From Hymenopus coronatus (lineage: Eukaryota; Arthropoda; Insecta; Mantodea; Hymenopodidae), in the NCBI GenBank assembly GCA_030762935.1, contig CM060900.1, positions 292,019,736-292,083,735 on the forward strand: a stretch of 64,000 nucleotides of DNA. Reading direction: 5' to 3'. The translations under genes and the position numbers were made by a program. This document shows positions 1-31,733 of the stretch, one piece after another (the first letter of the stretch is position 1; the number at the start of each line of letters is the position of its first letter). The notes below the pieces were generated by a model. The model did not search any database. It was not told where the DNA came from and saw only the letters and a list, made by a program, of their open reading frames with translations.

Positions 1-3797
<3,797 letters not shown>

Positions 3798-7842: not shown

Positions 7843-8479
7843 TGTCACAGTCGGTGTTGGACCATGAACAGGAGGGCGTAGCGGGGTATAGTAATTGATA
7901 GAGCACACGCTAATTTGCATAAGCTGGATTTATTATCCTAGTGTCATCACAATATTCAAAAGGTTATTAGTACAAATGTGTCACTTTACCTTGGTTAGAT
8001 GTCGATGTGCTGGAGGTTGGGTGATGTTAGTACTTTGGCGTTGCCACCGCCCTGCAGACTCCGATCACGGAGGATCACACTCTTACTACCTCGAGAATAG
8101 AAGCCCAACAGACACTCGCCCTTCCGGTCAAAGCCTTATATTAACCATCTCTACCCTAGAGGGTACTCGGCCAATATGGCTGCACGCCCTACCACCTTTG
8201 GTACTCTCGTGCCTACGTGACCGGAGACAGCTCACCGGGATGAGCCTGTTGCTAGGCGGATGATGACGTACATATGTTAATCCCCATTGCTAAAGTACCC
8301 GGATGGGGTTAACCTCATCATCCTCCCTAGAGTGTCTCACCGGCGACTTGACGACGCCGGAGTGAATGTGAGCAAATAATACTGGCTAAGAATTTAGCTG
8401 TAATTTGGAATCCTAAAATGTTAATCAAAAGGTCCACAATATGCCCGCCAGTTAGGCAACCCTCCAGGCACATGCGACA
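7843..8479 (-). repeat. 3' LTR (637 bp)
   Basis: Direct repeat of 27052-27688 at an offset of 19,209 bp with no difference seen by eye. In element orientation it runs from 8479 to 7843 with TG...CA ends. A 95-122 codon frame inside it on the plus strand has a TTG start, is antisense to the element and is judged spurious. Confidence 0.97.
7929..7934 (-). promoter_or_regulatory. Candidate polyadenylation signal AATAAA in the 3' LTR
   Basis: The minus strand reads AATAAA about 545 bases into the 637-bp LTR. This fits an R-region poly(A) signal and lies 200 bases downstream of the TATA-like box. The same hexamer is at 27138-27143 in the 5' LTR. Confidence 0.4.
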
Positions 8480-8515
8480 TATCCCCGTCGGCTAAGATTC
8501 GCCGCCCCGGCGAAT
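8480..8515 (-). promoter_or_regulatory. Polypurine-tract candidate and adjacent hairpin
   Basis: Just upstream of the 3' LTR in element sense is GACGGGGA followed by the dinucleotide TA (8480-8481). The same TA separates the 5' LTR from the PBS, as expected if integrase trims two bases from each cDNA end. The purine run is short for a PPT. Beside it, 8497-8515 is a perfect 7-bp hairpin (ATTCGCC/GGCGAAT) with a 5-base loop. Confidence 0.4.
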
Positions 8516-9873
8516 AAAACTAAAAACAAAGAACAATCCAAAAGAAAGCCAAGGCGACAAATCACATTGATTGCAATCTAAAGGCGCTGAAGGCGCCAGA
8601 CATGTACATAAACACAGATAAGTGACTGTCTCAATGAAACAAACAAACAAAAATTACATACAAAGTGTGATAATACCAATGCTGATTACATACAAAAGTG
8701 TCCAGTGGACAACCTAATCAGTTCAAGTCCATCCATAGTCACATTAAAATATCTGAAAAAAAAAAAGAAAACAGGAACGGGAAAGAAAAAAAGGAAAAGG
8801 GAAAAAGGAACTCACGAGCACCAATAGAAACACAGTTTGAGTCGAAGCCAAAATCCAGTGTTCAGTAAAACCTTTCCCTTCCCGCACACGCCCCCTCACA
8901 GTTGGTGCCACAAGAGTATTGTGCACAAAGCACCAGCACACGTTCGTCCACACCGGCACCACACCACACGCACAAGTCAGCAATCCCCACTGGAAGAGTA
9001 AATGAGAACGATAAAACTGCAGTCATAAACAGCAGCAGAGGGCATGACACAATCACCCTCCGGCCAGCAGAAAGAAGATCAGCAAGTGCGCCTCCACTGG
9101 GCGCAGTGCAAGAGGATGAAGCATCCTATCGGTCCATCGGCAGCAACTCCATATGGGGGAAGCAGCGGTGTGGGACCCGGTGATGGTGGCGACGTCAGAG
9201 CCAGGCAGCGGTACTGGAGCCAGGCGGCGACACCGTGAGCACCAGGGGCGCGGCGAAACTCAGGGGAGGTCGGGCGTCGATCCACAGCGTGCAACAGGGA
9301 AATGAAGAGAAAAAGATTAACCAAGGAGAAATAAAAGGGGAAGAAACAGAAAGGAAGTTGAGGAGTAAAACAAATTGGGAGGACCAATACGAGTAGTAGG
9401 GAGTAAGGTTGCCCTAGAGTATTATACAACAACGTTAAATGTGGCTATAGTCACAGCATAAGTGCTACCAAATCACAATAAAGTAAGTCTGAGTTTAATC
9501 ACATGTGATGACACTAGAGTAAGAGATAATAAATGGAATAATTAACATGAATAAAGCAGAGCAATAAAATGTAAGTGATTACAAGCAGTGACGAACCAAA
9601 AGCGTCACGTAGTGTGCCTATAGAGAGCAAAAGGTCACACAATAGTAAAATAACAAACACAGTAGGCGTTATAACATAAGGAGAGGCATTGGTGAGGGGC
9701 CCGCAGGCATTGAAACAAAATAGTAAAAGCTAGGTAGTACAGTGATGAACTCAAAACAGGGTTCCTCGTCAATGCCTTGCCTGTACATGGAAGTAGAAAA
9801 AGTACATAAGGAAAAAAAATTACAAAAACATATGACGTGACGTGAATGGGTGACTGCCATTAACTATAAGCAG
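8516..9873 (-). other. 3' untranslated region of the element
   Basis: About 1.4 kb between the env-2 stop and the 3' LTR. It contains a purine-rich stretch near 8757-8815 and several antisense or low-complexity open frames, none resembling a known protein. I see no further gene. Confidence 0.5.
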
Positions 9874-11667
9874 TCACAGTTGCGTCCTGGATGTGTTGAC
9901 GTAAGGTGTGCCCATAGCACGCCCCGAAGCATGAGGATAGTCAACCTGTCGAGGGTAGGAATACCCATGCTCCTTCTGTCGAGGAACTTCATATAGGGTA
10001 GTGGGAGCACCTGTGCTTACTGGTGTAGGTGGCAAGGGAGGTGGAGCCAAAGGTGGATAGTCATCACATCCTCGTCGGCTACGAGAAACAGTAGAGGAAG
10101 GAGGGCTGTGAGCATTAAAATTCATGGACCACGGTGGACGGTTACTCCACCGAATGGGGTACAGCCCATTGGTAACAGCTAGCCAAATTAGGTAACTGAC
10201 AATCAAACAGTTTATAAAAAGTAGTATACCCATCAAAGTCATCAAAATAATCATGGAGTAGTCTTTAGGGAGCCACTTAGAGTTGTAACACTCAGCAAGT
10301 GAGGTATAGGTAGGGTACGCTGCTGTTTCGTATGCCGGAAGTATCGTGGTAGTAATCGACGACCATGGCGCCGGAATTAGTCGATGAATGTCAATGGAAG
10401 GATAGTCAACAGTGGAACATTGTCGGGGGGGTGTCAAAGTGTAGTGAGCAGTGGAAATGTTACAATGGCATGGGAGCCGAACACGATATGCTCCCACGTC
10501 ACTTTGTAAGTACAAAGTCCGTCGTGAACTCGGGCAATGTAATTGAAATGTCGAGACATGAGTAAAAGTGAAGGTGAAAGCGTCAAATAGGGACACCATG
10601 GGTCGTTGAGTTTTAATGCATGTCATCGGACAAACTTGAGACAAATTGGAGATGGAAGTTCCGTGCAAGATGGCTGCAGCGCATGATGTTAACAAAGCGG
10701 ACGTCCCGTAAGCCGGGGTCGCTAAACACAAGCTAGATTTTGAAGTGTCACATTGGGTTAACAATATCCGAAAGCTATTATGGGAATATAGGATGGCTAC
10801 CGCCCTTCCCTCCAAGTTAATCATGCAAGTTTGGTCAAAGAAAGCAAAGGGTGTGGGCGTAAAAAAACGTCCTACTGCCCGTTGTACGTTAGCCTGAACC
10901 AACGGAATTTGTAAACCCAACATGACATACTGTGGAGAAAAGAAGCAATCCACCACTGGTGTAGAGTAAAACTTGCCAATGGCATCCTTTCCCCAAACCA
11001 ATCGGAAATCGGGATTACTATCCAAAACAGAATCTAAAGCCCTAGTCAGCAAGGTAGGTGAAATTATTGATGGGTTCAAATATCGTGTAATGCACATATT
11101 ATACAGCTGGTTTACACGATCTTTTTGCTTTAAGAGCTCAAGTAAAGGACCAGCTCCTGTAAAACGTGATGGAAACGCATCAGGAAGACTAACTATTCTA
11201 TCACACAATGAAATGTTTAGCAGAGTAACTAAATGAGTAAACAGGCGTGCTTTTTCCAAGATTTCAACCATGGCGGCATCAGAAATAAACATATTTTCTA
11301 TGTGGGGTTTGTCCGCCAACAAAAATTGTGATCCAAAAATTGATCCATCACCCCGCAAGGGGTTACCATGGAAATTAAACAGAGAAGGAAGCTCATTCCA
11401 TGAGTTCCCAAACTGTGAAAACATCCAGTTGCAGAAAGCGGAAGTGTTAGCATTGAGTGCGCAGTATGATGATGATGGTGCTTGCATGGCACATCTCGAA
11501 GCAAAAAATAACACTGGGACTGAGTGTTCGTACACTGTTATATTGGGTAACGTATAAAAATCTCCGCCAGCCGTAACTTCAATGGGGGGATTTTCAAAAT
11601 CAAGCTGACATACCATAGGAGTTGTCAATGTCATTATTATAGCTAATATCCTGTTCGCGGAAGCCAT
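9874..11667 (-). CDS. env: Second envelope-like glycoprotein (env-2), divergent paralogue without cleavage site
   Basis: A 597-aa reading from ATG at 11667; the longer frame upstream starts only at TTG. The N-terminus MASANRILAIIMTLTTPMVC looks like a signal peptide. The middle aligns by eye with env-1: shared spacing of Cys around PFAF..TC / PFAWGPSTC, the QCD segment, CP..C, the LPC.C motif and P.PWSS/PAGWSS. It should therefore be an extracellular glycoprotein of the same F-like family. It lacks the RxKR furin site and the hydrophobic fusion-peptide segment seen in env-1. One membrane span lies at about 472-498, followed by a 99-aa cytoplasmic tail with a proline-rich run (PPLAPPPLPP). The frame is intact. 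A receptor-binding or accessory role is possible but is inference. Confidence 0.8.
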   Translation of the reverse strand: MASANRILAIIMTLTTPMVCQLDFENPPIEVTAGGDFYTLPNITVYEHSVPVLFFASRCAMQAPSSSYCALNANTSAFCNWMFSQFGNSWNELPSLFNFHGNPLRGDGSIFGSQFLLADKPHIENMFISDAAMVEILEKARLFTHLVTLLNISLCDRIVSLPDAFPSRFTGAGPLLELLKQKDRVNQLYNMCITRYLNPSIISPTLLTRALDSVLDSNPDFRLVWGKDAIGKFYSTPVVDCFFSPQYVMLGLQIPLVQANVQRAVGRFFTPTPFAFFDQTCMINLEGRAVAILYSHNSFRILLTQCDTSKSSLCLATPAYGTSALLTSCAAAILHGTSISNLSQVCPMTCIKTQRPMVSLFDAFTFTFTHVSTFQLHCPSSRRTLYLQSDVGAYRVRLPCHCNISTAHYTLTPPRQCSTVDYPSIDIHRLIPAPWSSITTTILPAYETAAYPTYTSLAECYNSKWLPKDYSMIILMTLMGILLFINCLIVSYLIWLAVTNGLYPIRWSNRPPWSMNFNAHSPPSSTVSRSRRGCDDYPPLAPPPLPPTPVSTGAPTTLYEVPRQKEHGYSYPRQVDYPHASGRAMGTPYVNTSRTQL

Positions 11668-12360
11668 TTTGCTTCTTGGTACTACAATAAGCTTTATATA
11701 TATATAAATCAATTCAACAATAGGGCGCCCTAATCCACATTCTAGTGGTTACTTATGTGTTCACTTAACTGGAGCGACCGGTGCTCCTACTTATAACACA
11801 TCAAAGAAAATCATATCCGTGCACGGAGAAAAAAAAAACTCTTTATTTTACTCAATTAACCAAATAGATGTGCGACTGGACCTCGCGGTACACTGCCGAA
11901 CAATCTATTTCACCTGGTAATTAGACCAATAAAACCTCGGCGAGACTATTTACAGGATCTCACGATATCCCTGCAAATCCAAAATTTCGCCCTTGATCAA
12001 CTCAAAACCGTTTTTACCACAAGAGTCTCGCGACTGTCTCCTGGTAAAACCGTATGTATCCTAGTTATAACTACATCGCCCAAAATGACAGATTTATGCG
12101 GTAATTATTGACAAATCCTATGTATAACGTAAAAATTTAATAATCTTGAAATGGTTTTTCTAACACAAAACTAAGTATTCTTTGTGGCTGGTTTATCCAA
12201 AGCACATAAACAGGAGGTCGTGGTCTCGCCACTTCCTTCTTAAAAAGTCCCAGCGCTGTTCTTGCGTCACTCAAAACTTTCCGAAGCAGTAAAGCACAAA
12301 GAAGACAGGAAGAGAGGAAAACAACAGATAATAAAAGACGTTACCAAATCAATCGTTGCT
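11668..12360 (-). other. Env-1/env-2 intergenic region
   Basis: About 690 bases without a sense gene. Directly upstream of env-2 the minus strand reads TTATTGTAG then ATG 14 bases later, a weak candidate splice acceptor. Nothing else is recognised. Confidence 0.4.
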
Positions 12361-14409
12361 TCAAGCCGATGATGTTTCCGGTATCGGATCCAAAGTGGCT
12401 GGTGGTGCCCTCCTGGCTGCCACTGGTGGTGTTGTTAATAAGATAACACCACTGGTTTGCTGTTCACTTCTGAAATTTTGTCCGGCCCGGCGCACTGCCC
12501 AATGTAGTGTGATTGTCTGCCAACATAACTTAAGAACTCTATAAGTCACAGCGCAAATGAACAATAAGAGCAGTATGCTAAAAATAATGACGAAACTGTC
12601 GTAGACAGTTCCCGACATATTTCCCGAGGCAGTTACGCCTGGTAATCGAGCCGTGATCAGTAGTTCCGGTCTACGAAATAAAATAACGGCTAATACAATT
12701 GTTAAGAATACCATCCAGATAGATAACACATGGGTTAACATAATTGAATCGTGCGACACCGAAGCAGTGTCCAACGATGGCACAACGTAAGGGAGGTGTG
12801 ATAAATTGAGGTGTGGCACATTTAATGACCAATTCGTATTTAAGCATTGAGAAAGATTGGTAAAGGTTAAATGTTCTGCATTGGCCCAGGGTGAAATTTT
12901 GAGCGACGCCAAAGAAGACCATCCCGCCGGGATTAGGTGAAGGGTTTTAGGTTCGCCTGCCTTGAAACTAAGACAAGGAAATCGTTTGGGTATGTGTATG
13001 ACACTGCCCAACTTCAGTTCACAAAAGCATGGGAGTGAAAGTTGAAGAGCCCCTGGGGAGTCTGGGGGTAAATTTGGAATAACCTGTGAATTATTATTAC
13101 ACCTTAATTCAATGGGTTCTAGGGGATGGGTGATAACATATTCATCCTGTGCCACTTCCGTGATCATCATTTTATTAGCGGAATGACATTGAAAAGGACA
13201 AAATTCGTTCATTTCCGCTGCAGTCATACCTTGCAGTAATTTAACTGCACATAAGGGGGTAAAAAGCAAATCATCACTGAAACGAGGTATATAGCACAGT
13301 CCGGTCTTAAATGGATCACATTGTTGCATCGCGGCACCAGTAATGGGACGGACCATTGAACCACTAACGGCTACAAAGGCCGTGTCATGAAGAATGGTGC
13401 AGGTAGAAGGACCCCATGCAAAGGGTGTACTCAGAAATTGATAAAGTTCCCAGTTCGAGCCTTTTTGTTTTACTGGAATTTTAACAGTTACCATAATGTA
13501 TGTGGAACTAAATGAACAGGAAGTGATTTCTAAATCAAAGTAACGGTGAATTTGAGAGTTATCAATAACTAACTCAAAATCCGTGTTGGCAAGGGTACGT
13601 TGTAATAGTAATAATTCATGCTCGAAAATATCAAAGGGAATGATGGAGAGAGGAAATAAATGATTACGGCATAACAGCATAGAATCCATTTGTTTTAACA
13701 GAAGTACGGTATGAACTGATCTCTGAGTGTTCTGTAGAATTTCCCATAAAGAAAAGAATTGATGATCGGAAATTTGGTTAAGGTTATTGCGGAGTGAGGT
13801 GTAGGAGTAATTAGCATCACTCATTGCGGATTTTAAGCGATCATTAATTTTGTCAAATGACTGAGCTAGCTGTGCGCTATAATCATTTAATTTATCCTGA
13901 GCAGATGAAAACCAGGTATGGTCTTCGGCAATAATTCGTTCCATAGCGGTATAATGATCCAATAGCTGTCGATCAGTGGCTGCCAAATCATTGATTTGAC
14001 TGGAAGTAGCCACGTCACAGCAAAAATTAAGCACATCACCAAAAAATGCAACTCCACGTTTAGCTCGATGTTCTTCTACATCGGTAAAGTTAAATACAGC
14101 ATCAAACAACTTACGCAATTCTCGGTCAAGAGTTTGCCCTATGACATTAATGTCATCTTCCAATTGGATGAGGGCCTGCGGGGGTGACCGTCTCCCCTCA
14201 GGTCTCTGAGTAGTCAATGGTTGGCGGTCCACTCGTTCTCGAAGTACTTTAAAAACCAATGGGACGGAAGCCTGATAAGCCACCGTTTTCGGCAGAGGCT
14301 TCATAGCCGCCCCCGTCGCTATTCGTATCGGCCTATCGCCGATATCCTGTCCACAGGTCGCCGGTAGAACCGCCGTAACCGAAAGAAGAATTGCACAGAG
14401 GTAAAGCAT
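12361..14409 (-). CDS. env: F-type envelope fusion glycoprotein (env-1)
   Basis: A 682-aa intact frame from ATG 14409. A signal peptide covers about residues 1-20. A furin-type site RAKR (115-118) is followed immediately by a hydrophobic Gly/Phe-rich segment starting GVAFFGDVL, which has the arrangement of the F1 fusion peptide in baculovirus F and insect errantivirus Env proteins. A heptad-like helical region follows (about 140-215). The Cys-rich ectodomain precedes two hydrophobic spans (about 558-578 and 605-628), so the C-terminus may be double-spanning or have a long membrane-proximal region. The cytoplasmic tail is about 54 aa. The expected role is membrane fusion of enveloped particles at entry. 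A splice acceptor abuts the start codon, consistent with expression from a spliced subgenomic RNA. Confidence 0.88.
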   Translation of the reverse strand: MLYLCAILLSVTAVLPATCGQDIGDRPIRIATGAAMKPLPKTVAYQASVPLVFKVLRERVDRQPLTTQRPEGRRSPPQALIQLEDDINVIGQTLDRELRKLFDAVFNFTDVEEHRAKRGVAFFGDVLNFCCDVATSSQINDLAATDRQLLDHYTAMERIIAEDHTWFSSAQDKLNDYSAQLAQSFDKINDRLKSAMSDANYSYTSLRNNLNQISDHQFFSLWEILQNTQRSVHTVLLLKQMDSMLLCRNHLFPLSIIPFDIFEHELLLLQRTLANTDFELVIDNSQIHRYFDLEITSCSFSSTYIMVTVKIPVKQKGSNWELYQFLSTPFAWGPSTCTILHDTAFVAVSGSMVRPITGAAMQQCDPFKTGLCYIPRFSDDLLFTPLCAVKLLQGMTAAEMNEFCPFQCHSANKMMITEVAQDEYVITHPLEPIELRCNNNSQVIPNLPPDSPGALQLSLPCFCELKLGSVIHIPKRFPCLSFKAGEPKTLHLIPAGWSSLASLKISPWANAEHLTFTNLSQCLNTNWSLNVPHLNLSHLPYVVPSLDTASVSHDSIMLTHVLSIWMVFLTIVLAVILFRRPELLITARLPGVTASGNMSGTVYDSFVIIFSILLLLFICAVTYRVLKLCWQTITLHWAVRRAGQNFRSEQQTSGVILLTTPPVAARRAPPATLDPIPETSSA

Positions 14410-14425
14410 CTGGAAACAATTTTAA
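14410..14425 (-). promoter_or_regulatory. Candidate 3' splice site directly before the env-1 ATG
   Basis: The minus strand reads AAAATTGTTTCCAG and then ATG with no spacer. The pyrimidine run and CAG make a good acceptor, as expected for env expressed from spliced RNA in gypsy-type retroviruses. The donor was not identified with confidence. Confidence 0.55.
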
Positions 14426-17400
14426 TAAACATTAATAACATGATTCAAATACATTACTGTGAACTTAACCTAATCTCGCAACCGAAGAACGAGAGAAAAC
14501 TAAAACGGGGGGGGGGGTCGAGGAAAAATTTAGCATTAACGAAAAGGAAAAAGAAAGAGAAGAGGAGAAGGGAGGGAAATTATTTAGGATTTTTATTTTT
14601 TTTTTTTTTGTAATGATTGGTAGGTGAATTTATAATTAAAGAAATTATACAAATGTTCACCCAAGAGCGCCTCTGCTCGGAAGAGGATGTGGTCCGCGGT
14701 AAGAAAAATTCCAGTGGCCAAGTGCAACAAATGACGTGCTCTTTTTTTTCTTTACTTCTTTACATTCATTTCTTTGTTCATTTTTTTTCATGTGTGTGTG
14801 TGTGTGTGTATGGCAAGAGGAGAAAGAATAAGCGAAAAAGAATCATAGAAATGGAAAAACCTTTGCTCATCCGGGAAAATAAAAAACAACGGATGAGATG
14901 TTGGGCACTCTGCAATGGTCAGTTCAGTAGAAGCACATCATAATGGAAGAAGGGATTGTACGGCAGCTCTTGTATCTTTTTATCACAGGCGCACCGCCTA
15001 TTGAACATCGCCCGGGTAAGTAATTAAATATCGACGAAAAATAAAATACAAGGGTCTCGTCAATATACTGACAAATACAATTACGCGCAAGTTTCAGAGG
15101 CACATAGCGGTAATGGACCGCACGGTGCGCGACGAAACAGCTCCGGCCTCACCCACGACTACTGAAGGTGAGGGAGAAGAGCGATCCCCGACTCCAAGAG
15201 AATCTCAAGCGAACGCCAACAGCTCTTCCCATATCAACCCTGCTGCCTTGTAGGGTACAACCGAAAAAAAAAAAAAGGGGGGGGGAATAGGCAGCTAGGT
15301 GAGTAGTAATGTCCATGAACACCTCGTGGTTTCTGCTCTCTCATATGCGAAGAGGTCAAGGGTTATTTTTCTTTAGTTTCTCTTTGTATATGTTTTTCTA
15401 ATTTGTGATTAGGTAATTTACGGATAAATGACATCACTAAATAAAGTAATGGAATATAAATGTTACAAGGGGGTTGAATGTCGAGAAGTAAAAATTATAA
15501 AGAAATCTCAAGTTTAGTAAACGTAAGTAAACATGGTCTATTATATGCATACTAACAATTCATATCACTAGAGGGAAGGAGAGAGAAAAAGAAAGAAAAG
15601 AAAAGAGAGGAAAATAAAATGACAAATGCATCTCTTTCATCTTAACAGAAATTAGAATGAAACGCGGTGAATAAATGCACCGTAGCATTTCGCTAGGAAT
15701 GTACAGGAAGTGCCTGTTCGCGCAGCCGACTAGTACTGGAAATTGGTAGCGGAAATGTGGAAGAGTGGGGAAGTGTAGATAGTAATAACAGTGGTGGAAC
15801 CCAAAATCTGTCCCAATTTGTGCGTAATTAGTGTAGCCACTGGACGTGGGTCTGATGTTCATGTGTGTCTAAAGTTAAGTGTAATAAATGTCAACAAAAA
15901 AAAATAACAGTGTTAAGTGAAATAGTGAGTTGTGAAAGTAAGATGTGTACACAGTGAATTACATCAGTGGTGCCTGTTTAATGGATATCATCAGTCAACG
16001 CATTTTCTGTAAGTACGACTCTTATTATGACAACAGGATATCGAGAATGAACGGGATGAATGAAACTAAAGGGTATGTGTGATATTTAAAGTAAGGAAGG
16101 CGAGAAAGAGGACTTATGATCCGAATTACATTTCAGGGAAGGAGGGAAAGGAGAAAAAAAAATTATTAGTGATTACCAAACAACTGAGAATAGAAATGAC
16201 TACTATGATGAATAATGTAAAAGGGGGGGGGGTGTTTACATGTCAAACTGACATATATGATGGTTCGCCAGTAACAATAATTAATTCCACAAAAATAAAA
16301 ATTGTTCGTATAGAAGTGCACCTTTAGTCAGATTTCGAAAATAAACTGGGGGGGCTGTTAAAGGTGCTTATGGGGGGAATATTTTAAGGGGCGCTCCGGA
16401 CCCAACCAACCAAGACGACTTCAAGTTCGACCACCAGATATGTAGGGCAAGCGTTGTAAACTTATACGCGTCTATCAGTTCATCTTAGGTTATACACAAA
16501 AGTAAACCTACAGATCCCGTCAGTGGACATTTGTTACTAATTGTCTTGAACCAGACTGATCACATTATCACTTGTATCGCACATTTACAAATTGTACAGT
16601 TGTTCTCTTACGCGGGTTGTTGTATATAAGGGATTTATCATACGAATAAACTCACGATAAAAATTATTGAGAATATTATGAAAAAGGCACGTATCTAATG
16701 AAATTTAAGGTTTTTCAGAACTATTAGATTCATAAAACTATTTTTAGAATGGCCAAAGGATTAAGACACTGTTATCTGGGTTGCAGTTACAGCTTTCCAG
16801 AACCAAGAGTTGGAAATTATAAATACTTGCATATGAGTAACACACGTAAATGCATCAAAACAGTTATCTACTGCTGCGGCGGTAGTAAATATAGAAAGAG
16901 ATAAGCAACCACATCATTTTACAGATTACCGCTCCAGAGAGAAACCTATTAATGTTTAAAGTGACAGTCCAAGAAATATAAACTAGCGATAAAATAGGCG
17001 CTGAAATAAACATATTTTGGTAAAGTGAATTGTTGGAAGATCACATGTGCAGATTAATACTCAAAATTTCCATTGAAGCACGAGCAATCAAATGTTTAGT
17101 GAAAACTTTACATCTCGTATGCATGTCACTGCATACATCTAAGTGAAAAAAAAAATGGTATTTAACCCAAGGATGGAAGGGGGGGGGAGGGATTACATTG
17201 ATGGTCAGTACAAATCGAATATATTCAAAGTGACATAATAATCGAAGCAATAAAATTAAACATTATGTTGCGAATCGCATATATAGTGCCATACTGAAAA
17301 AAAAATTATATTGACTGTTTATATTCCAATGGAAATCAAGCACTGCAGTAACACCGTAAGATATCTGCAAATTTTATTTCCATAAACTTTAGCATTTAAA

Positions 17401-18796
17401 AGCTAAATAAATTAATTATAAAATAGAAAAATGCAGTTGAATAAAGTGTTCTTTTGAAAAATCGAAAGCAACTAATTCGAGGCTAATGCAAACTGTGATG
17501 CTTAGGAGAAGAATCACCTTAAAGGTACTCTAAAGATTACAATTAAATAAAATTACAAAAGTATTTTAATTGCAAAATTTTGAATTTGTAAGCTACTGAA
17601 AGAAATTGAAAACAGAGGTATAAATTGAAACATCAGGCAAGGAGACTACATTTACGATATCCATTTCTGGCAATAATATAGTAAGAAAAGAAAGTGTCTG
17701 GAGAGTTGCAATGCATATGCAAAATCGAGGCAGGGTTTCTGTTGATTTTATTTTCTCCCATTACAGCATATAATCCACTGTATTCGGTGGAAACATGCTA
17801 TTGTAAAATATACATTCCCATATGTGTGCGGATGGTGTTCTTAACTTATTTCCACCTACGTCAGATTACGATAGTGGACAACTTTATGCAACATGGTCAA
17901 CCCACTGGCTTATACTCGCATTACATGGTGTGAAATCAAGTACCATGCTGTATTTATATTAATAAATCAGCAACAAATGAGGAATACTTTCACTGAAATA
18001 AAAGTTGTCTACTAGAAAAAAAACAACATACACGTCATGATTAAAATAATGAAAGTAATTAAAATGGTTATATGAATAACACATGTGCGACATTTCCGGT
18101 GCTACACCGTACTTAGCTTATGTTATATACATAACTATTCTAGCATTTTTATATATATTATGCAAGCTTTAATGCAAATACTTCCCGTTGTTTTACGAGT
18201 TTATTAGCATTATTGTTCAGATTCCTGGTTGGCTTATGCATTTGCAGTTAAAAACTATTGTAACAAAGAGATGTACATTGAATATATTTTGAAATTTGCA
18301 ATAGTTTCAAGAGCAAATTTGGTTAACTCACTACTTCCATAAAAAAAACAACAGTAAATTACATAGAAAATGGTATGAAAGATCATACTTATAAAGTTTG
18401 AAATGAAATAGTGAAATGAAATATTCATGTCCTCCAACTAACAAAGAGGCGTTATAACAATATGAAATAATTAGATTATTATAGTTTAAAAAAAAAGATA
18501 AGCGAAACATATAGTTTATGCATGGCTAAATAAGTGATTTTAAGGTTATGTAAATACAATGCGCATTGCATATAATCTATATAAACACATGTATTGCTCT
18601 CCACATCCTGGAATATGGTGTTAAGAATATAAATGTTCCAAAATTAGTTGCATTACTAAATATTGCTTAAATTTCAATGATAAATATAAATGAAAGCATT
18701 GAACAACAAAATAACAAAATGAGTGTTTATGTTAATTATATATAGAGTGTAAATCAACACAAACTACACAGCCAATTAAAATAATGGCGACATAAC
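14426..18796 (-). other. 4.4-kb internal region without sense genes
   Basis: Between the ADAM stop and the env-1 start no sense-strand frame exceeds about 100 codons, and none looks like a protein family. The region is AT-rich with homopolymers: G-runs near 14507, 15275, 16209, 16349 and 17178, A-runs, and a (GT)n at about 14792-14809. It could hold cis-acting RNA signals, another captured but decayed segment, or the antisense unit at 14.9-15.3 kb. Confidence 0.5.
14944..15253 (+). other. Possible small spliced antisense ORF
   Basis: On the plus strand, antisense to the element, an 82-base intron-like segment at 15016-15097 has a consensus donor (GTAAGT), a CTGAC branch-like motif and a TTTCAG acceptor. 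It joins two GC-richer stretches in phase and leads into a 46-codon frame from ATG 15113 to TAG 15251-15253 that is rich in Pro, Thr, Ser and Glu. Upstream in the same frame, before a stop at 14941-14943, is a Lys/Arg-rich stretch (GKRRKNKRKR). No homologue is recognised and chance is quite possible. Antisense genes do exist in some retroviruses, but that is only an analogy. Confidence 0.25.
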
Positions 18797-21058: not shown

Positions 21059-21711
21059 TTTCAGTTGAAAGTGGAAGGGTAAGAAATTGCAAATTAACCC
21101 TTACCCAGTGTATATGAGAAGCGGTGACTGCACAAATTGCCTCTTGTAATATTTACCAAGTGGTCATTCTGGGGTTGGGGTGACGCTAAAGAGACAAAAA
21201 AAAACAAAATGCCTATAGAAGTCATGTCGGACTAATGGGGATAGCGAAACTAATAATAATAATAATGATAATAATAAGGGTAATAATATTAATAGCAATA
21301 ATAATAATAAAATGCAAAAAATTTAAGGCACATAAAAAAATTAACTCACTCATGTAGTTCTCTTTTTTTTTTTCTTCTCTCTATTCATTAAACATTGATT
21401 GTACACTCCATTAGTTCAGGTCAAATAATATAGAACAATTACACAAGCTATATAATAAAAAGCATAATAAATCCATGAGGTTATGGCAAAAACAAGCGTA
21501 TTTTATATATGTATATATTATATATGTATGTACCTTCTTTTTTTGTATATGTATATATATATAGTAACAAAATCAAAATGCATCTATTACAATTACATAT
21601 ATATGTTAAATGAAATATAATTAAGGTTTCTGTGTACTATTTGAACAGGTGATCTGTTAAAGCAATAACTATAAACAGTTATATTACGTGTATCTAACAT
21701 TAAAGATTATT
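21059..21711 (-). other. Pol-ADAM spacer
   Basis: About 650 bases holding an imperfect TAA/ATA microsatellite (21252-21310) and TATATG-rich DNA (21505-21605). A pyrimidine-rich stretch lies just upstream of the ADAM ATG (about 21062-21090, minus strand) but I see no clean AG acceptor at its end. No gene. Confidence 0.5.
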
Positions 21712-24700
21712 CTAACCTCTTTTATAGGGTGCATAATAAGGATATAGACGAGATACATGCACTATCATATCTCTAATTTTAGGACCTGTTGTTTGCCTTA
21801 TCTGGTAATTAACAGGTGATGTCTGTTGTACTACAATATAAGGTCCTTGAAATCTGTGTAACAATTTAGTAGTCATGCCTTTCTTTCGAATTGGCGAAAA
21901 TAGTTTCACTGTTTGGCCAGGGGCGTATTGTAGTGTACGCCTCTTGCGGTCAAAAATACGTTTATCCCGTATTTGTCTTTGCGCGATATTATCCTTTGCA
22001 AGCTCACGTGCTTGGCGGATTCGAGTTTGAGTCTCTTTAAGGAAGAGGTTATCACTTGTGTGTTTTAATTGAACCTCTTCGGGTAGGGTGGGATTTCTAC
22101 CATAAATCAAATAAAAGGGTGACATTCCTGTGGATTCCTGTCGACTGGTATTATATGCGAACACGACATGCGGTACAGCAACATCCCAGTCATCTTGTTT
22201 AGTAGAGGTATAGTTAGAAATCATATTGATTATAGTTTGATTGGCTCTTTCACACAAACCGTTACAAGCCGGGTGATAAGCGGTAGTATATACAGACTTA
22301 ACTCCCATAAAGGCTAACAGGTGACGTGTAACTCCACTAAGGAATACCGCACCCCTATCGGAGAGAAGCATGGCAGGCGCCCCGTGGCGACAAATTATGT
22401 TTTCCAAAATAAATTGAGCCACATGCTCGATAGAGCCTTTCGGGATTGCCTTCACTTCTACCCATCTACTTGCAAACTCGGTGCCAACAATCAACATAGT
22501 GTTCCCCAGGCGAGACTTCCTGATTGGACCAACCAAATCAATGCCCCAACGTTCTCCAATACGGTTAACTGGTATTGGCTGCAGAAATCCTGCAGGTTTC
22601 ACATTTTTGGGACCTTTCCTTGTTTGGCAACTCGGGCACCCTTTAACATATTTCTCAATTTCTTTACGCATCCCTATCCAGTAATACCTGTTATTAATTT
22701 TTGTAAAGGTTTTGGTGAAACCTAAATGACCTGAAAGTGGGTCGTCATGACAAGAATGTAAGATTTCCTTCTTTAAAGATTCTGGAATAACTAACAAGTG
22801 TAAGGCACCTCTTGCACCTGCATTCTTGCGGTACAGCACCCCCTCTTTCAAAATGTAAGAGGCGGCCTGTCGCCTTAACTTAGGAGGTCCTGCATCCGGA
22901 TCTTCTAAGATTTGGATTATGGGTTTTAACTGGGAGTCTTTTAGTTGTTCCTGTGCTACAGCTACTGGAGAAAGTAGACAAGTGATAAGATCATCCATTT
23001 GTTCAAGAATGGATGGCTTAGGTGGGTCTACAGGATACCGTGATAATGCATCTGCATCCAGGTGTTTTGCACCAGATTTATAGATGATTGTGTAATCGTA
23101 TTCCTGTAATTTTAATGCCCATCGAGCTAATCTGCCAGTGACGTCTTTTAAATTTCGTAAATAGCAGAGAGCATGATGGTCACTCACAATATTGACTGGA
23201 TAACCATAGATATAGGGTCTAAAATGTGTTAGACCATAGACTATAGCCAATAATTCCAATTCGGAAATACTATAGTTCTTTTCGTGTTTATTTAGTGCCC
23301 TGGAACAATATGCAATGGGGTGTAATTCACCATCAATTCTTTGCAATAATGCACATCCTACGCCCACTGTACTAGCGTCAGTGTGCAATTCTGTGTAAGC
23401 ACCAGGGTGATAATGGGCCAACACTGGCGCTGTGGTTAGACAGCGTTTCAGAGCTTCAAATGAATTTTGATGTTGGGGTGTCCAAATAAAATCTTGGTTT
23501 TTCCTAGTCAAGTCATGAAGGGGTTGGGCAATTGATGCAAAGTTACAGACAAAACGTCTGTAGAAGCTAAACAACCCTAATACTTTGCGAACATCCCTTA
23601 CCGATTTGGGAACCGGAAGTTCAGTAATAGCCCTTAATTTGTCCGTATCGGGTTCAATGCCCTTGGCTGACACCTCAAAGCCTAATAACTTGATACGAGA
23701 CATTCCAAAGAAACACTTTTCGGGTTTAAGCTTGAAATTGTGTTCCTGCAACTTGCAGAACACTTCTTCCAGATTACTTAATAATTCTTCAAATGTAGGT
23801 GCAAATACAACAATGTCATCGAGATATACTAAAGCTTTCTTATATCTCAAATCACCCAGTAACTTACTGGCAGCTCTAGAGAAAAATCTTGGAGCATTTA
23901 CCAGTCCAAAGGACATGCGATTAAATTCGTATTGTCCATCTGGAGTTACAAATGACGTATACTTGCGACTGTCTTCTGCAATGGGTACTTGAAAATATGC
24001 ACTTAACAAGTCTAAAGAACAGTACCAACGGGATTCTCCCAAATAACTCAATAAGTCATCTATCAATGGCAAAGGATAGGAGGAGTCAACAGTAACTGAA
24101 TTTAATTTTCGATAATCTACACAAAACCGAAAAGAATTATCCTTTTTCCTAACCAACACTATCGGTGAGGCCCAAGGACTATCGGACTCATCGATAATAC
24201 CTGCATTATGCATTTCCTGTACTTGGGTTTGTATTATCTCACGCTGAGCCTGAGATACTCTGTAAGGTCGTTGTCTTATGGGTGTGTCTTGTGTAACTTC
24301 AATTTGAAATTCCCCAATATCTGCTGTCCCTAACTCATTTAACTGAGTTGCAAAAATATGTCGATAATGTGTCAATAGTGTTTGCAAATGTGTTTTCTGA
24401 TGGGGTGCAAGTTGTGAATTGAGATTAAAGGTAGCCCCCTGGATACCAACTGAGCACGACTCAGTTGTCGACCAGTTTGCTGATTGCACTAGTGCGACCT
24501 CATATGCCTTAGCCAAAGTAGTACCTGCAAAGATGGTTTTTGGTTCAGCAGTATTGTTGTGGAGAGGGATTACGCATTCCTTATCAGCTTCACAAAATAT
24601 AGGTGTTATGTCAATGTTCTTTTTCTGCATCACTCTCGTGTTAGGTTCCAAAAGGACTCTACCCATTCTATTAGAAGGGAGGTGAGCGTTAACAAGTAAT

Positions 24701-25287
24701 GATGTGAATGGGGGTATTCTAGTGTCTTTTGTGCAAGAAACTTTATAATCTTCCTCTGGGCTCTGGTCATGTTCTAAAGTGATTTGTGCTAATGGGCAAT
24801 CATTTTTTTCTTGGCATTGCAAAGTGACTTTTCTGGAATCGGGTAAATGGAGAGTTATTGAAAAGGATAACAAATCAATAATCGCCCCATACCGATTCAT
24901 AAAATCCATTCCCAATAAGAGATGACGTCCGAATTCTTTTACTACTAGGACATCCTCTGAGAATTGTACGCCACCAATTTCAAAACCTAGAGTTGTAGCA
25001 TATTGGACATCTAATAAGTGATTGTTTGCTGTGCGCAAAGTTAAGCTTACTGGAGCAGGATAAGTAGGGGTTGTAACAAAACTTTCGTGGACAATGCTTA
25101 CAGCACTGCCTGTGTCAAATAAAATATCCACCGATATATTCTTACCTAGTGTACCCCTGTATGTAAGTGTATTGACCGGTTGGATAAGTGAGGTTATGTG
25201 TTCTTGTGTGGGATTAGGTGGGGATGCCACGGAACTTATTCCCGTGACATTCCTGACCCGTTTGGGGGGTTGAGTTTCTGTCTGCAA
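21712..25287 (-). CDS. pol: Ty3/gypsy Pol polyprotein (PR-RT-RH-IN)
   Basis: About 1190 aa in the -1 frame relative to gag. The frame opens at 25308 without ATG (25287 is TTG), so it should be made by frameshifting. Counting from 25287: retropepsin DTGSAVS (58-64); RT with D391 region, CSLDLLSAY (D426) and YLDD (488-491); RNase H with HTDAST (D637), SELELLA and VSDHHAL (D703); integrase HHCC finger (H847, H854, C884, C887); DD35E core D917, D977, E1013; and a C-terminal FQGPY motif like the GPY/F module. The order PR-RT-RH-IN is that of Metaviridae. All key residues are present and there is no internal stop, so the gene appears active. The gypsy lineage was not determined. Confidence 0.95.
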   Translation of the reverse strand: MQTETQPPKRVRNVTGISSVASPPNPTQEHITSLIQPVNTLTYRGTLGKNISVDILFDTGSAVSIVHESFVTTPTYPAPVSLTLRTANNHLLDVQYATTLGFEIGGVQFSEDVLVVKEFGRHLLLGMDFMNRYGAIIDLLSFSITLHLPDSRKVTLQCQEKNDCPLAQITLEHDQSPEEDYKVSCTKDTRIPPFTSLLVNAHLPSNRMGRVLLEPNTRVMQKKNIDITPIFCEADKECVIPLHNNTAEPKTIFAGTTLAKAYEVALVQSANWSTTESCSVGIQGATFNLNSQLAPHQKTHLQTLLTHYRHIFATQLNELGTADIGEFQIEVTQDTPIRQRPYRVSQAQREIIQTQVQEMHNAGIIDESDSPWASPIVLVRKKDNSFRFCVDYRKLNSVTVDSSYPLPLIDDLLSYLGESRWYCSLDLLSAYFQVPIAEDSRKYTSFVTPDGQYEFNRMSFGLVNAPRFFSRAASKLLGDLRYKKALVYLDDIVVFAPTFEELLSNLEEVFCKLQEHNFKLKPEKCFFGMSRIKLLGFEVSAKGIEPDTDKLRAITELPVPKSVRDVRKVLGLFSFYRRFVCNFASIAQPLHDLTRKNQDFIWTPQHQNSFEALKRCLTTAPVLAHYHPGAYTELHTDASTVGVGCALLQRIDGELHPIAYCSRALNKHEKNYSISELELLAIVYGLTHFRPYIYGYPVNIVSDHHALCYLRNLKDVTGRLARWALKLQEYDYTIIYKSGAKHLDADALSRYPVDPPKPSILEQMDDLITCLLSPVAVAQEQLKDSQLKPIIQILEDPDAGPPKLRRQAASYILKEGVLYRKNAGARGALHLLVIPESLKKEILHSCHDDPLSGHLGFTKTFTKINNRYYWIGMRKEIEKYVKGCPSCQTRKGPKNVKPAGFLQPIPVNRIGERWGIDLVGPIRKSRLGNTMLIVGTEFASRWVEVKAIPKGSIEHVAQFILENIICRHGAPAMLLSDRGAVFLSGVTRHLLAFMGVKSVYTTAYHPACNGLCERANQTIINMISNYTSTKQDDWDVAVPHVVFAYNTSRQESTGMSPFYLIYGRNPTLPEEVQLKHTSDNLFLKETQTRIRQARELAKDNIAQRQIRDKRIFDRKRRTLQYAPGQTVKLFSPIRKKGMTTKLLHRFQGPYIVVQQTSPVNYQIRQTTGPKIRDMIVHVSRLYPYYAPYKRG

Positions 25288-26759
25288 TTTAAGGCTACGT
25301 GACCTGGTCTACGACATATAAAGCAGGTAGGACGACCATTTACAGTACGGCCGTTAGCATTGGGTCCGCGCCATCTTCTGCGATCGGGTGGAATGTTATT
25401 TGAACTGGAACTGAAAGTAACTTTCTGACCAAAATTTCTCTGATCAAAATTTCTCTGACCAAAATTTCTCTGATCAAAATTTCTCTGACCAAAATTTCCC
25501 TGATCAAAATTTCTCTGACCAAAATTTCCGCGGTTACCAAAGGTACCTCGGTTGGAGCCACGCCCTCGCTGAGAGCTAAATTGTCCCTGATTGCGGGGCG
25601 AGGTTTTATCCTCGTTACCACGCAACGCAAGCTTTTGAAACTGCTTATGTAGGCCCTGTATTTCTCGGGTCAAATCAGCTATGGGGTCCCTAGGGGTTGT
25701 AGTGCCCACAAAAGAAACTGGAGTTGGCGTGGGTGTTGGAAGAAGATCTACCCTCTGACCAGCAAGGTATCTAGCCGCCTCTATACGGCGAACTAGCTTT
25801 GTCAGATCTTTCACTGTTTGTGGATCTAACGGGAGAACCTGTTCCAAAAGAGAAGGCTTCAACCCTCGCATAATATAGCGAATGCGCTCTTTTTCAGGCA
25901 TTCCTGGGTTGATCTGATCACATAACACAAGTACATCATAGATGTACTTTTCTGTGGGCTCAGTTAGCTCCTGCATCCTCTGTCGCAAGCGACATTCCAG
26001 GATGTCTTCCTGAGCTGCAGGCACAAATGCGCCCTGAAGAGCAGCTTTTAAATCAGCCCAGCAATGTTGAACATGCCGGGGGGCAAAGGTTTTGAACCAG
26101 TTTGCCGCTGCTTCCCTTAGGTAGCAGGGTAAGTACTGCTTCTTGCAGTTGTCATCCCAGCCATTGGCTGCGGCAATAGTATCAAAATTGTAAAGATACG
26201 TGGACACATCTTGACCAGGTTTTCCCTCAAAAATCCCAGGATCTATAAATGGGCGGGCAAAAGGTACTGTAGGGTGGGAAAGTGGTTTCATATTTTGTTC
26301 CATGCCTGAAGACCCTGCCTGAGTCGCTGTAGTGGTCATAGTGGAAGTTGGTAAAATAGAAACAGAACCTGATCTCGATCGAGCGACTGAAGGTGTTTTA
26401 CTACCTGTGTGAGATGAATTTTCTGATCTACTGGCAAATTCTCCCAAATTACTGCCCTTATTAGCCAAGTCTACTGTGGTATCATCTACTTCAGATAAAT
26501 CACCCGCACTAAAACTTCTCTGTGTTAAAGGAAAATATTTAAGTGGTTGTTGTCCCCTGATTCTACGACTGCTTCTGGTTTGAATTTTAGACATGGATTT
26601 ATACAAATCACTTAGCTCCGAAGATAACACTTGAACATCTTGAACAGCAAGAGCATAAGTGTGAACATTGTCATCTAACGTCTGTTGATATTCTGCAATA
26701 AGCTTTCTGATTTCAGAACTAACAGGGCTGTTGCTTTGAAACTGGGATAATAAATCCAT
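25236..26759 (-). CDS. gag: Gag polyprotein with CCHC zinc knuckle
   Basis: 507 aa from the first real ATG (26759); the open frame extends 14 codons upstream to a TTG at 26801. A Ser/Thr-rich N-terminal region is followed by a capsid segment of Retrotrans_gag type (aromatic WADLKAAL and the EPTEKYIYDVLVLCDQINP stretch), then a Gly/Arg/Asn/Phe/Gln-rich low-complexity section with tandem NFGQR/NFDQR pentads, and a CX2CX4HX4C knuckle (CFICRRPGHVALNC) close to the end. It would form the particle and bind RNA. The knuckle separates it from classical Drosophila errantivirus Gag proteins, which generally lack it. Confidence 0.9.
   Translation of the reverse strand: MDLLSQFQSNSPVSSEIRKLIAEYQQTLDDNVHTYALAVQDVQVLSSELSDLYKSMSKIQTRSSRRIRGQQPLKYFPLTQRSFSAGDLSEVDDTTVDLANKGSNLGEFASRSENSSHTGSKTPSVARSRSGSVSILPTSTMTTTATQAGSSGMEQNMKPLSHPTVPFARPFIDPGIFEGKPGQDVSTYLYNFDTIAAANGWDDNCKKQYLPCYLREAAANWFKTFAPRHVQHCWADLKAALQGAFVPAAQEDILECRLRQRMQELTEPTEKYIYDVLVLCDQINPGMPEKERIRYIMRGLKPSLLEQVLPLDPQTVKDLTKLVRRIEAARYLAGQRVDLLPTPTPTPVSFVGTTTPRDPIADLTREIQGLHKQFQKLALRGNEDKTSPRNQGQFSSQRGRGSNRGTFGNRGNFGQRNFDQGNFGQRNFDQRNFGQRNFDQRNFGQKVTFSSSSNNIPPDRRRWRGPNANGRTVNGRPTCFICRRPGHVALNCRQKLNPPNGSGMSRE
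25260..25266 (-). promoter_or_regulatory. Candidate -1 frameshift heptamer CCCAAAC
   Basis: In the gag frame the minus strand reads C CCA AAC, an X XXY YYZ heptamer. A one-base backward slip puts the ribosome into the pol frame (CCC AAA CGG). It lies 22 bases before the gag TAA (25236-25238), inside the gag/pol overlap (25236-25308). An overlapping C CCC CCA heptamer is also present. Confidence 0.65.
25424..25528 (-). repeat. 15-bp tandem repeat within gag
   Basis: Seven near-identical 15-base units (CTGACCAAAATTTCT / CTGATCAAAATTTCT on the plus strand) encode alternating NFGQR and NFDQR pentapeptides. The array keeps frame and gives Gag a prion-like, RNA-binding-like low-complexity patch. 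It is likely variable in length between copies. Confidence 0.9.
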
Positions 26760-27051
26760 ATACTTAAAACAATTAGGAATTTGAATAATTACACTGATCA
26801 AGCGTATGTATAACTCCCGTAATACGTAGGGTCAGATAAATAAGACAGACCACTGTCGACCAGCACAAAAAGAGTAATCCTGTAGTAACAACATCAAATC
26901 TCATGGTGTACCAAAACTGATTTTACAACAAACAAAATATGAATCTAATACACATAATTTAGTAATTTTGAAATTATTTACAGAAATTTCGAAAGTACTG
27001 GGATTGAAACCATACTTTTCACCGATTGTGAAAAGCCGGGCCTCCACCATA
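26760..27051 (-). other. 5' leader of the element
   Basis: 292 bases between the PBS and the gag ATG. It presumably holds the packaging signal and a splice donor for the env and ADAM RNAs, but I could not single out a convincing donor. Confidence 0.5.
27035..27049 (-). promoter_or_regulatory. Primer-binding-site candidate
   Basis: Two bases (TA) after the 5' LTR the minus strand reads TGGTGGAGGCCCGGC, starting with the TGG that pairs with a tRNA CCA end. The complement ends GGGCCTCCACCA. I cannot assign the tRNA with confidence; a Thr-type acceptor end is one possibility if the PBS starts three bases later. Confidence 0.6.
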
Positions 27052-27688
27052 TGTCACAGTCGGTGTTGGACCATGAACAGGAGGGCGTAGCGGGGTATAG
27101 TAATTGATAGAGCACACGCTAATTTGCATAAGCTGGATTTATTATCCTAGTGTCATCACAATATTCAAAAGGTTATTAGTACAAATGTGTCACTTTACCT
27201 TGGTTAGATGTCGATGTGCTGGAGGTTGGGTGATGTTAGTACTTTGGCGTTGCCACCGCCCTGCAGACTCCGATCACGGAGGATCACACTCTTACTACCT
27301 CGAGAATAGAAGCCCAACAGACACTCGCCCTTCCGGTCAAAGCCTTATATTAACCATCTCTACCCTAGAGGGTACTCGGCCAATATGGCTGCACGCCCTA
27401 CCACCTTTGGTACTCTCGTGCCTACGTGACCGGAGACAGCTCACCGGGATGAGCCTGTTGCTAGGCGGATGATGACGTACATATGTTAATCCCCATTGCT
27501 AAAGTACCCGGATGGGGTTAACCTCATCATCCTCCCTAGAGTGTCTCACCGGCGACTTGACGACGCCGGAGTGAATGTGAGCAAATAATACTGGCTAAGA
27601 ATTTAGCTGTAATTTGGAATCCTAAAATGTTAATCAAAAGGTCCACAATATGCCCGCCAGTTAGGCAACCCTCCAGGCACATGCGACA
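27052..27688 (-). repeat. 5' LTR (637 bp)
   Basis: Identical by eye to 7843-8479, with TG...CA ends and GTAT at 27689-27692 outside. It would drive transcription leftward. A TATA-like ATATAAGG is at 27343-27350 on the minus strand, with AATAAA 200 bases downstream of it. Confidence 0.97.
27343..27350 (-). promoter_or_regulatory. TATA-like box in the 5' LTR
   Basis: The minus strand reads ATATAAGG about 340 bases into the LTR, which would place transcription start about 30 bases further left. Some gypsy LTRs are TATA-less, so this is tentative. The same motif is in the 3' LTR at 8134-8141. Confidence 0.3.
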
Positions 27689-27692
27689 GTAT
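27689..27692. repeat. Target site duplication GTAT (right)
   Basis: Matches 7839-7842 and abuts the outer end of the 5' LTR. Confidence 0.9.
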
Positions 27693-31718: not shown

Positions 31719-31733
31719 TGTAATCACCTAGAC
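31719..31733. repeat. 15-bp target duplication (left) of the Jockey-like LINE
   Basis: TGTAATCACCTAGAC here is repeated exactly at 37129-37143, flanking the LINE. Confidence 0.9.

What the first reader, a model, noticed from the sequence alone, without database searches (positions are those of the whole stretch)
7843..27688. A 19.8-kb complete gypsy-type provirus with gag, pol, an ADAM protease and two env genes
Seen: 637-bp LTRs identical by eye, TG...CA ends, GTAT duplication, PBS-like and PPT-like sites in the right places, and five large intact co-oriented ORFs. Known: animal Ty3/gypsy elements are usually 5-10 kb with gag-pol and at most one env. Inference: this is a new type of giant insect endogenous retrovirus that has captured a host-type gene. 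I know of no described equivalent.
Basis: partly seen in the sequence, partly recalled or inferred. Interest (0 to 1): 0.96.

Follow-up and report, generated by a model that had tools for sequence, protein, structure and literature searches.

The report
Giant retroelement carrying captured ADAM protease
A 19.8-kb virus-like jumping element in an arthropod genome carries two envelope genes and an ADAM-type membrane protease of animal origin; whole five-gene copies have spread recently, and a distant sister family shows that the protease has been kept by selection.

Summary
Window 7843-27688 (minus strand) is a complete Ty3/gypsy provirus: identical 637-bp LTRs, GTAT duplications, gag, pol in the -1 frame with CCCAAAC, an intact ADAM, a 4.4-kb spacer and two paralogous envelope genes. 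In its own 3.13-Gb genome, all 22 close ADAM loci I tabulated have env1 and env2 downstream and 21 have pol upstream; 12 of 13 LTR-to-LTR copies measure 19.76-19.98 kb. Nine of ten other copies whose ends I read have perfect 4-bp target duplications. A second family (pol 61%, ADAM 52%, env1 54%, env2 45% identical) has the same gene order, frameshift heptamer and size, and LTRs differing at 1 of 651 sites. Three element ADAMs form one clade (100/100), share a disintegrin deletion, and show omega near 0.11. The second family's env1 is F-type (Baculo_F). Env2 lacks the furin site of Env1; 4 of 5 env2 sequences read carry RGD there. Likely an enveloped retrovirus-like agent with fusogen, attachment paralogue and sheddase; that function is inferred. 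Some related lineages lack or have cut the ADAM. Arthropod is supported; 'insect' is not shown. My searches found no described equivalent.

The parts
27052..27688 (-). 5' LTR of the element, 637 bp
   Evidence: identical to 7843-8479; in 8 copies, this one included, both LTRs are perfect matches to it
7843..8479 (-). 3' LTR, 637 bp
7839..7842 (.). target site duplication GTAT, one side
27689..27692 (.). target site duplication GTAT, other side
27040..27049 (-). primer-binding-site-like TGGTGGAGGC, 2 bases inside the 5' LTR
   Evidence: the same 10 bases lie just inside the LTR of the second family; tRNA not identified
25236..26801 (-). gag ORF (521 aa, first Met at residue 15), capsid domain and a weak zinc knuckle
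   Evidence: Retrotrans_gag E 3.1e-12, zf-CCHC E 0.012
25260..25266 (-). slippery heptamer CCCAAAC in the gag frame within the gag/pol overlap (-1 frameshift site by sequence)
   Evidence: same heptamer in the same register in the second family
21712..25287 (-). pol ORF (1191 aa): protease, RT, RNase H, integrase
   Evidence: Pfam hits in the order PR-RT-RH-IN
18797..21058 (-). ADAM (753 aa): prodomain, reprolysin, disintegrin, cysteine-rich, EGF-like, TM-like stretch, proline-rich tail
   Evidence: Reprolysin 1.3e-46, Disintegrin 3.5e-13, ADAM_CR 1.8e-23, EGF_2 0.0017; TM-like stretch
20033..20065 (-). zinc motif HELGHSLGMEH of the ADAM
   Evidence: kept in the two diverged element ADAMs and the other ADAMs aligned
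14410..18796 (-). 4.4-kb spacer between ADAM and env1 without a long ORF on the coding strand (longest about 100 codons)
   Evidence: a spacer of about 5.0 kb lies at the same place in the second family, sharing only a 30-base match
12361..14409 (-). env1 (682 aa): signal-like N-terminus, furin-type site, fusion-peptide-like stretch, two C-terminal TM-like stretches
   Evidence: its counterpart in the second family matches Baculo_F at 5.1e-10
14056..14067 (-). furin-type site RAKR of env1
   Evidence: RRKR at the same place in the second family
9874..11712 (-). env2 (612 aa, first Met at residue 16), paralogue of env1 without a furin-type site at that place; one TM-like stretch
   Evidence: BLASTP to env1 E 8e-24
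11347..11355 (-). RGD of env2, inside NPLRGDGSIFGSQF
8480..9873 (-). 1.4-kb 3' noncoding region ending in a weak polypurine-like stretch

Best explanation
SHOWN BY SEQUENCE: the stretch is a recently inserted, complete member of a multi-family lineage of Ty3/gypsy retroelements with the gene order gag-pol(-1 frame)-ADAM-spacer-env1-env2, and the five-gene unit has moved as a whole. WELL SUPPORTED: the ADAM descends from one old capture of an animal gene of the meltrin (ADAM12-like) type and has evolved inside the element under purifying selection. INFERRED: the products of the 3' half form a surface set made from spliced subgenomic RNAs. Env1 is the F-type fusogen (furin site, fusion peptide). 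Env2 is a paralogue that has lost cleavage and serves attachment, perhaps through its RGD. The membrane ADAM acts as a protease on the infected cell or the particle, trimming a host surface protein or an Env, so that particles are released, are not re-bound, or can reach and enter germ cells. I put about 0.4 on this division of labour, and about 0.3 on sheddase activity against Env or its receptor as against matrix penetration or signalling. The confidence below is for the shown and well-supported parts.
For: Provirus anatomy. Unit mobility: 22 of 22 tabulated close ADAM loci have env1 and env2 downstream on the same strand and 21 of 22 have pol upstream; 13 LTR-to-LTR copies could be paired, 12 of 19,756-19,978 bp and one of 25,252 bp, all 13 with ADAM, env1 and env2. 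Of 10 other copies' ends read, 9 have exact 4-bp duplications; the tenth has an extra inverted LTR, and its outer flanks share ATAC. Old association: the second family (C4, C7, C10) has all five genes in the same order; its C4 copy is 19,062 bp, with the same slippery heptamer and LTRs with 1 difference in 651. Selection: GY94 omega 0.108 (A vs B, 709 codons, 2dlnL 275) and 0.115 (A vs C18, 655 codons, 2dlnL 303) for ADAM. One capture: the three element ADAMs form a 100/100 clade and share a 6-residue disintegrin deletion removing two cysteines, absent from the four other ADAMs and the seven. Env type: Baculo_F 5.1e-10 for env1 of the second family, 39 bits against a cut-off of 24.1.
Against: No expression, virion or protease data were available. 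The window's own env proteins match no Pfam family above cut-off, and the env1 search of the protein collection found nothing (8000 candidates scored). dS is saturated or near it between families, so omega values are rough; what the fits show is that omega = 1 is rejected. Two C18 copies have gag-pol-ADAM but no env in the 9.8 kb next to it nor in 7 kb or more beyond. Two copies of a lineage with env1 70% identical keep only the ADAM C-terminus. A lineage at C21:99.4M seems to have no room for an ADAM. So ADAM is dispensable in some lineages, or these copies are decayed. One close copy (C10:50.52M) has env1 and env2 but no close ADAM among the scored hits. Env2's RGD is QGD in one lineage. The host's own ADAM gene was not found or compared.
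Confidence: 0.85

Rival explanations
1. A one-off composite: an ordinary gypsy element with an ADAM retrogene and env genes inserted or misassembled into one copy.
For: The size is unusual, and the spacer is AT-rich (GC 0.345) and has no long coding-strand ORF.
Against: The same order and like spacing recur at 21 of 22 close ADAM loci and in a second family; LTR spacing is nearly constant; target duplications are intact in 9 of 10 other copies read.
Confidence: 0.02
2. The ADAM is a passenger that rides without function.
For: LTR elements with extra ORFs of unassigned function are described (passages of PMC5408684 and PMC6431247). Some related lineages here lack or have cut the ADAM.
Against: ADAM is open and catalytically complete by motif in two families about half identical, and in a C18 copy, with omega near 0.11; shared derived deletion.
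Confidence: 0.07
3. The ADAM serves the element inside the animal by signalling, adhesion or tissue remodelling near germ cells rather than entry or release.
For: Meltrin-type ADAMs act in cell signalling and cell-cell contact (recalled). Env1 already has fusogen features.
Against: Its place beside the two env genes and its co-conservation with them fit a surface role in the particle cycle, but do not prove it.
Confidence: 0.3
4. Env2 is a decaying duplicate with no function.
For: No furin site or clear fusion peptide at the matching place; about 23% identity to env1.
Against: Open in many copies, present in several lineages, omega = 1 rejected between families (2dlnL 199; omega 0.048 but near saturation), conserved block around RGD.
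Confidence: 0.05

Closest known systems
Errantiviruses (gypsy, ZAM; insect endogenous retroviruses)
   Same: gag, pol and an F-type envelope with furin site and fusion peptide (PMC12992720 passages); Ty3/gypsy pol order; short target duplications (recalled)
   Different: a single third ORF, env, in the passages read; here 19.8 kb, two F-type env paralogues and an ADAM; whether pol belongs to the gypsy/gypsy clade was not tested
Burro giant gypsy elements of planarians
   Same: giant metazoan gypsy-like element with extra host-like domains and a region with homology to gypsy Env
   Different: Burro encodes a 4,873-aa polyprotein with BIR, BCL2-like, MATH and other domains and exceeds 30 kb with LTRs (PMC6431247 passages); here separate ORFs and an ADAM
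Bdelloid rotifer LTR elements with captured ORF3
   Same: capture of an enzyme or env gene downstream of pol
   Different: there GDSL esterase, DEDDy exonuclease or a paramyxovirus-like env as different ORF3 types (PMC5408684 passages); here ADAM plus two env together
Arthropod meltrin (ADAM12-like)
   Same: prodomain, reprolysin, disintegrin, cysteine-rich, EGF, TM and zinc site; about 32-42% identity for named arthropod hits
   Different: one open ORF in a retroelement, disintegrin deletion, two extra cysteines near the zinc site, short tail
Baculovirus F protein
   Same: Baculo_F profile matched by the second family's env1
   Different: encoded by a retroelement, as a diverged pair of paralogues

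Membership tests
Metaviridae (Ty3/gypsy) | pol order protease-RT-RNase H-integrase | tested here: met
   same in second family
Metaviridae (Ty3/gypsy) | LTRs TG...CA with 4-6 bp target duplication (stated for most LTR retrotransposons in the abstract of PMC12440569) | tested here: met
Metaviridae (Ty3/gypsy) | tRNA primer binding site | tested here: inconclusive
   TGGTGGAGGC next to the 5' LTR in two families; tRNA not identified
Errantivirus | F-type (baculovirus F-like) envelope | tested here: met
   second family's env1 is above the Baculo_F cut-off; window env1 is 54% identical to it but matches nothing above cut-off itself
Errantivirus | pol inside the gypsy/gypsy clade | not tested
   no named errantivirus pol was in hand; nearest named rows are mainly arachnid elements
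Errantivirus | env as the one ORF beyond gag and pol (as described in the passages read) | tested here: not met
   two env genes and an ADAM
ADAM (M12B, reprolysin) | HExxHxxGxxH and Met-turn | tested here: met
ADAM (M12B, reprolysin) | prodomain-reprolysin-disintegrin-cysteine-rich-EGF-TM architecture | tested here: met
   the EGF match of the window copy is weak (0.0017, below cut-off), and the prodomain is seen by alignment, not by Pfam
ADAM (M12B, reprolysin) | protease activity | not testable with these tools
   needs biochemistry
Burro | single giant polyprotein | tested here: not met
   five ORFs

The most novel reading that the evidence does not exclude
A hitherto undescribed lineage of enveloped arthropod retroviruses, still moving, in which a three-part surface set (F-type fusogen, RGD-bearing attachment paralogue, and a captured ADAM sheddase) works together: a retrovirus-like agent that carries its own cell-surface protease, much as influenza carries a receptor-destroying enzyme.
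Probability: 0.35. Interest if true: 0.93.

Novelty: new variant of a known kind. Interest (0 to 1): 0.86.

Why it matters
An intact transmembrane metalloprotease of animal type has been kept in a retroelement through a deep split of families, beside a duplicated envelope, in an element about twice the usual size that amplified very recently. It gives a natural system for asking how virus-like elements gain surface functions, how large a retroelement RNA can be and still move, and what a viral ADAM is for.

Tried and rejected
Env1 folded from a single sequence gave a useless model (mean pLDDT 38.8), so no fold search was made. Pol, env1 and ADAM queries against viral contigs found no confirmed relatives. 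A PDB search with the env alignment found nothing. Rfam and tRNA scans of the window were empty. Misassembly, one-off insertion and passenger ADAM were considered and set aside on the multi-copy and two-family evidence. Window and second-family spacers share only a 30-base match. Splice sites were not tested. The ten completed paper searches listed no retroelement with an ADAM; I saw titles and starts of abstracts of the listed rows, only open-licence PubMed Central papers are in that library, and a relevant preprint (Chary and Hayashi, known by title from a reference list) was not held. Host identity was approached only through telomere repeats and names of relatives. In the tables, hits in several parts were collapsed by hand, five separate diverged ADAM loci were left out (C1:58.35M, C3:83.29M, C21:164.02M, C21:164.58M, C21:316.06M), and the inverted LTR at C8:66579569 was left out of the 41 LTR matches.
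Full report
What is in the window. The stretch 7843-27688 is an LTR provirus read on the minus strand. Both LTRs are 637 bp and identical, have TG...CA ends and are flanked by GTAT. ORFs: gag (521 aa), pol (1191 aa), ADAM (753 aa), env1 (682 aa), env2 (612 aa). Gag has a retrotransposon capsid domain and a weak zinc knuckle; pol has protease, RT, RNase H, H2C2 and integrase core in Ty3/gypsy order. Pol lies in the -1 frame of gag, and the overlap holds CCCAAAC in the gag frame. The ADAM has reprolysin, disintegrin, cysteine-rich and a weak EGF domain, HELGHSLGMEH and a Met-turn, and a TM-like stretch before a proline-rich tail. Between ADAM and env1 lie 4.4 kb without a long coding-strand ORF.

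It is a family that moves as one unit. The own genome (3.13 Gb, 384 contigs) was searched piece by piece: ADAM (64 matches, 60 of 268 candidates scored), LTR (41 matches, 40 of 73), env1 (69 matches, 65 of 353), env2 (77 matches, 72 of 536), pol (42 matches, 39 of 9167). Counts are therefore lower bounds. I took the 22 ADAM loci closest to the window (93% identity or more over the matched parts, split hits collapsed by hand) and asked what lies around them: 22 of 22 have env1 and env2 downstream on the same strand, 21 of 22 have pol upstream, 14 have a 5' LTR and 15 a 3' LTR among the scored LTRs. Thirteen LTR-to-LTR copies could be paired, 12 of 19,756-19,978 bp and one of 25,252 bp; all 13 hold ADAM, env1 and env2. 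Eleven of the 40 LTRs tabulated have neither partner nor close ADAM (solo LTRs, cut copies or unscored partners; not examined). One locus with close env1 and env2 (C10:50.52M) has no close ADAM among the scored hits, and one lies at a contig edge (C285). In eight copies, the window's included, both LTRs are perfect matches to the window's LTR, so the spread is recent; no rate was available to date it. Of ten other copies whose ends I read, nine have perfect 4-bp duplications (ATAT in six, ATAA, ATAG and CTAT in one each); the tenth has an extra inverted LTR, with ATAC on both outer sides. Many copies have open frames: 14 of the 16 full-length close ADAM hits have no stop.

A second family and the age of the capture. 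Copies at C4, C7 and C10 carry gag (45% identical over most of the match), pol (61%), ADAM (52%), env1 (54%) and env2 (45%) in the same order. The C4 copy is 19,062 bp with 651-bp LTRs that differ at one site and an ATAT duplication; it has the same heptamer, the same TGGTGGAGGC near the 5' LTR, and GGGGGGAGA before its 3' LTR. The table counts one TAG within the matched stretch of these pol hits, while the ORF from its own first open codon to its stop is 1182 codons in the C4 copy. Of 12 diverged ADAM loci whose pol side I fetched, 9 have gag-pol upstream on the same strand, one has it on the other strand, and two have none. Of 23 diverged loci tabulated (five more were left out), 10 had env1, 9 env2 and 7 pol in the scored lists, and 5 had all three. 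The picture is not uniform. Two C18 copies have gag-pol-ADAM and no env in the next 9.8 kb or the 7 kb or more beyond. Two copies with env1 70% and env2 61% identical (C21:268M, C16:28.6M) keep only about 250 residues of the ADAM C-terminus, the C16 one with a stop, while a C9 copy with an equally similar env1 has a nearly full-length ADAM with two stops. A lineage at C21:99.4M (pol 75%) has about 1.4 kb between pol and the extrapolated start of env1, too little for an ADAM. As that pol is closer to the window's than the second family's is, loss of ADAM there is the simpler reading; no tree was made of it.

Selection and origin of the ADAM. Pairwise GY94 fits between the window and the second family reject omega = 1 for all five genes; for ADAM omega is 0.108 (709 codons, 2dlnL 275), and against a C18 copy 0.115 (655 codons, 2dlnL 303). 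Distances for gag, pol and env1 ran to saturation and that of env2 is near it, so those omegas mean no more than being far below 1. In a tree of 20 ADAMs the three element ADAMs form one clade (100/100, long stem of 2.38) among meltrin-type proteins of arthropods and some unnamed rows; enclosing forks have 92-93 support, put the spiders just outside and leave the exact place open. A first tree of 38 rows with the window's ADAM alone left it on a long, unplaced branch. All three share a six-residue gap in the disintegrin domain that removes two cysteines, and two added cysteines near the zinc site, against four other ADAMs; the seven non-element ADAMs also keep the six residues. One capture before the families split is the best reading.

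Envelopes. Env1 and env2 are paralogues (E 8e-24; 23-24% in the alignment). Env1 has RAKR followed by a fusion-peptide-like stretch, and RRKR stands at the same place in the second family. The second family's env1 matches Baculo_F at 5.1e-10, above the curated cut-off, and its env2 at 7.3e-4, below it; the window's env proteins match nothing above cut-off. The family label of the window's env thus rests on its homology to the second family. At the place of the cleavage site env2 has NPLRGDGSIFGSQF. Of five env2 sequences read there, four have RGD (window, second family, C16, and C4:74.77M, which looks close to the second family) and one has QGD (C17). RGD as an integrin-binding motif is recalled, and its use here is a guess.

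How it may work. Shown: movement as a unit, open coding capacity in the window copy, conservation. Inferred: spliced RNAs for ADAM and env (splicing of env in insect relatives is described in passages of PMC12992720), Env1 as fusogen, Env2 as attachment protein, ADAM as a surface protease that trims Env or a receptor. Rivals are a signalling, adhesion or matrix role for ADAM, or a passenger gene; the passenger reading is disfavoured by the selection result, though ADAM is absent or cut in some lineages.

Comparison with what is known. In passages read, insect errantiviruses have an F-type env as a third ORF (PMC12992720); Burro elements are giant polyproteins with other host-like domains (PMC6431247); bdelloid elements capture enzymes or env as ORF3 (PMC5408684); Troyka elements carry no env (PMC12440569, abstract and passages). 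None of ten completed paper searches listed an ADAM in a retroelement, which is no proof of absence. The protein collection gave 46 ADAM-type hits, at 42% identity or less, and none for env1. Pol's closest rows are unnamed contigs at up to 50% and, by name, mainly pseudoscorpion, tick and spider elements, with a few fish, frog, amphioxus and choanoflagellate rows.

Host. TTAGG repeats occur 88,925 times against 23 for the reversed control, which with the relatives named above points to an arthropod; insect versus arachnid is open.

The confidence went from 0.8 to 0.85 only because it now covers the shown and well-supported parts, the mechanism having its own odds.

Noticed in passing
own genome C8:66579569-66600024: One copy has an extra LTR in inverted orientation joined to its 5' end by two bases (TA), and the outer flanks share ATAC, as if an element with an inverted third LTR had integrated in one event.
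   Followed up: partly
own genome C21:268218669-268219385 and C16:28640691-28641407: Two copies of a related lineage keep only the C-terminal part of the ADAM (cysteine-rich to tail); in the C21 copy it lies about 0.5 kb after pol.
   Followed up: partly
own genome C17:81.29M, env2: RGD of env2 is replaced by QGD in one lineage.
   Followed up: partly
own genome C21:507.34M and C21:508.60M: env1 and env2 relatives lie close together on opposite strands in both places.
   Followed up: no
own genome C10:50.43-50.62M: Env and ADAM matches of several families lie within about 0.2 Mb.
   Followed up: no
own genome C4:103.03-103.06M: The second family's C4 copy sits inside a tandem satellite; match spacing suggests a period of about 143 bp.
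   Followed up: no
own genome, 11 places: LTRs without a partner or a close ADAM in the scored lists, perhaps solo LTRs.
   Followed up: no
32127-36850 (-): A G+C-rich non-LTR retrotransposon with an endonuclease-RT ORF (899 aa) and an upstream ORF with a weak PRE_C2HC match.
   Followed up: no
2-3794: A 3.8-kb imperfect TTA repeat array.
   Followed up: no
31333-31812 (-): 160-residue open stretch with very weak similarity to adenovirus minor capsid protein VI (E 0.05, below cut-off); perhaps a relic of a Polinton-like element.
   Followed up: no
63495-63947 (-): Open stretch weakly matching the end of a DDE_Tnp_1_7 transposase, with a cysteine-rich C-terminus.
   Followed up: no
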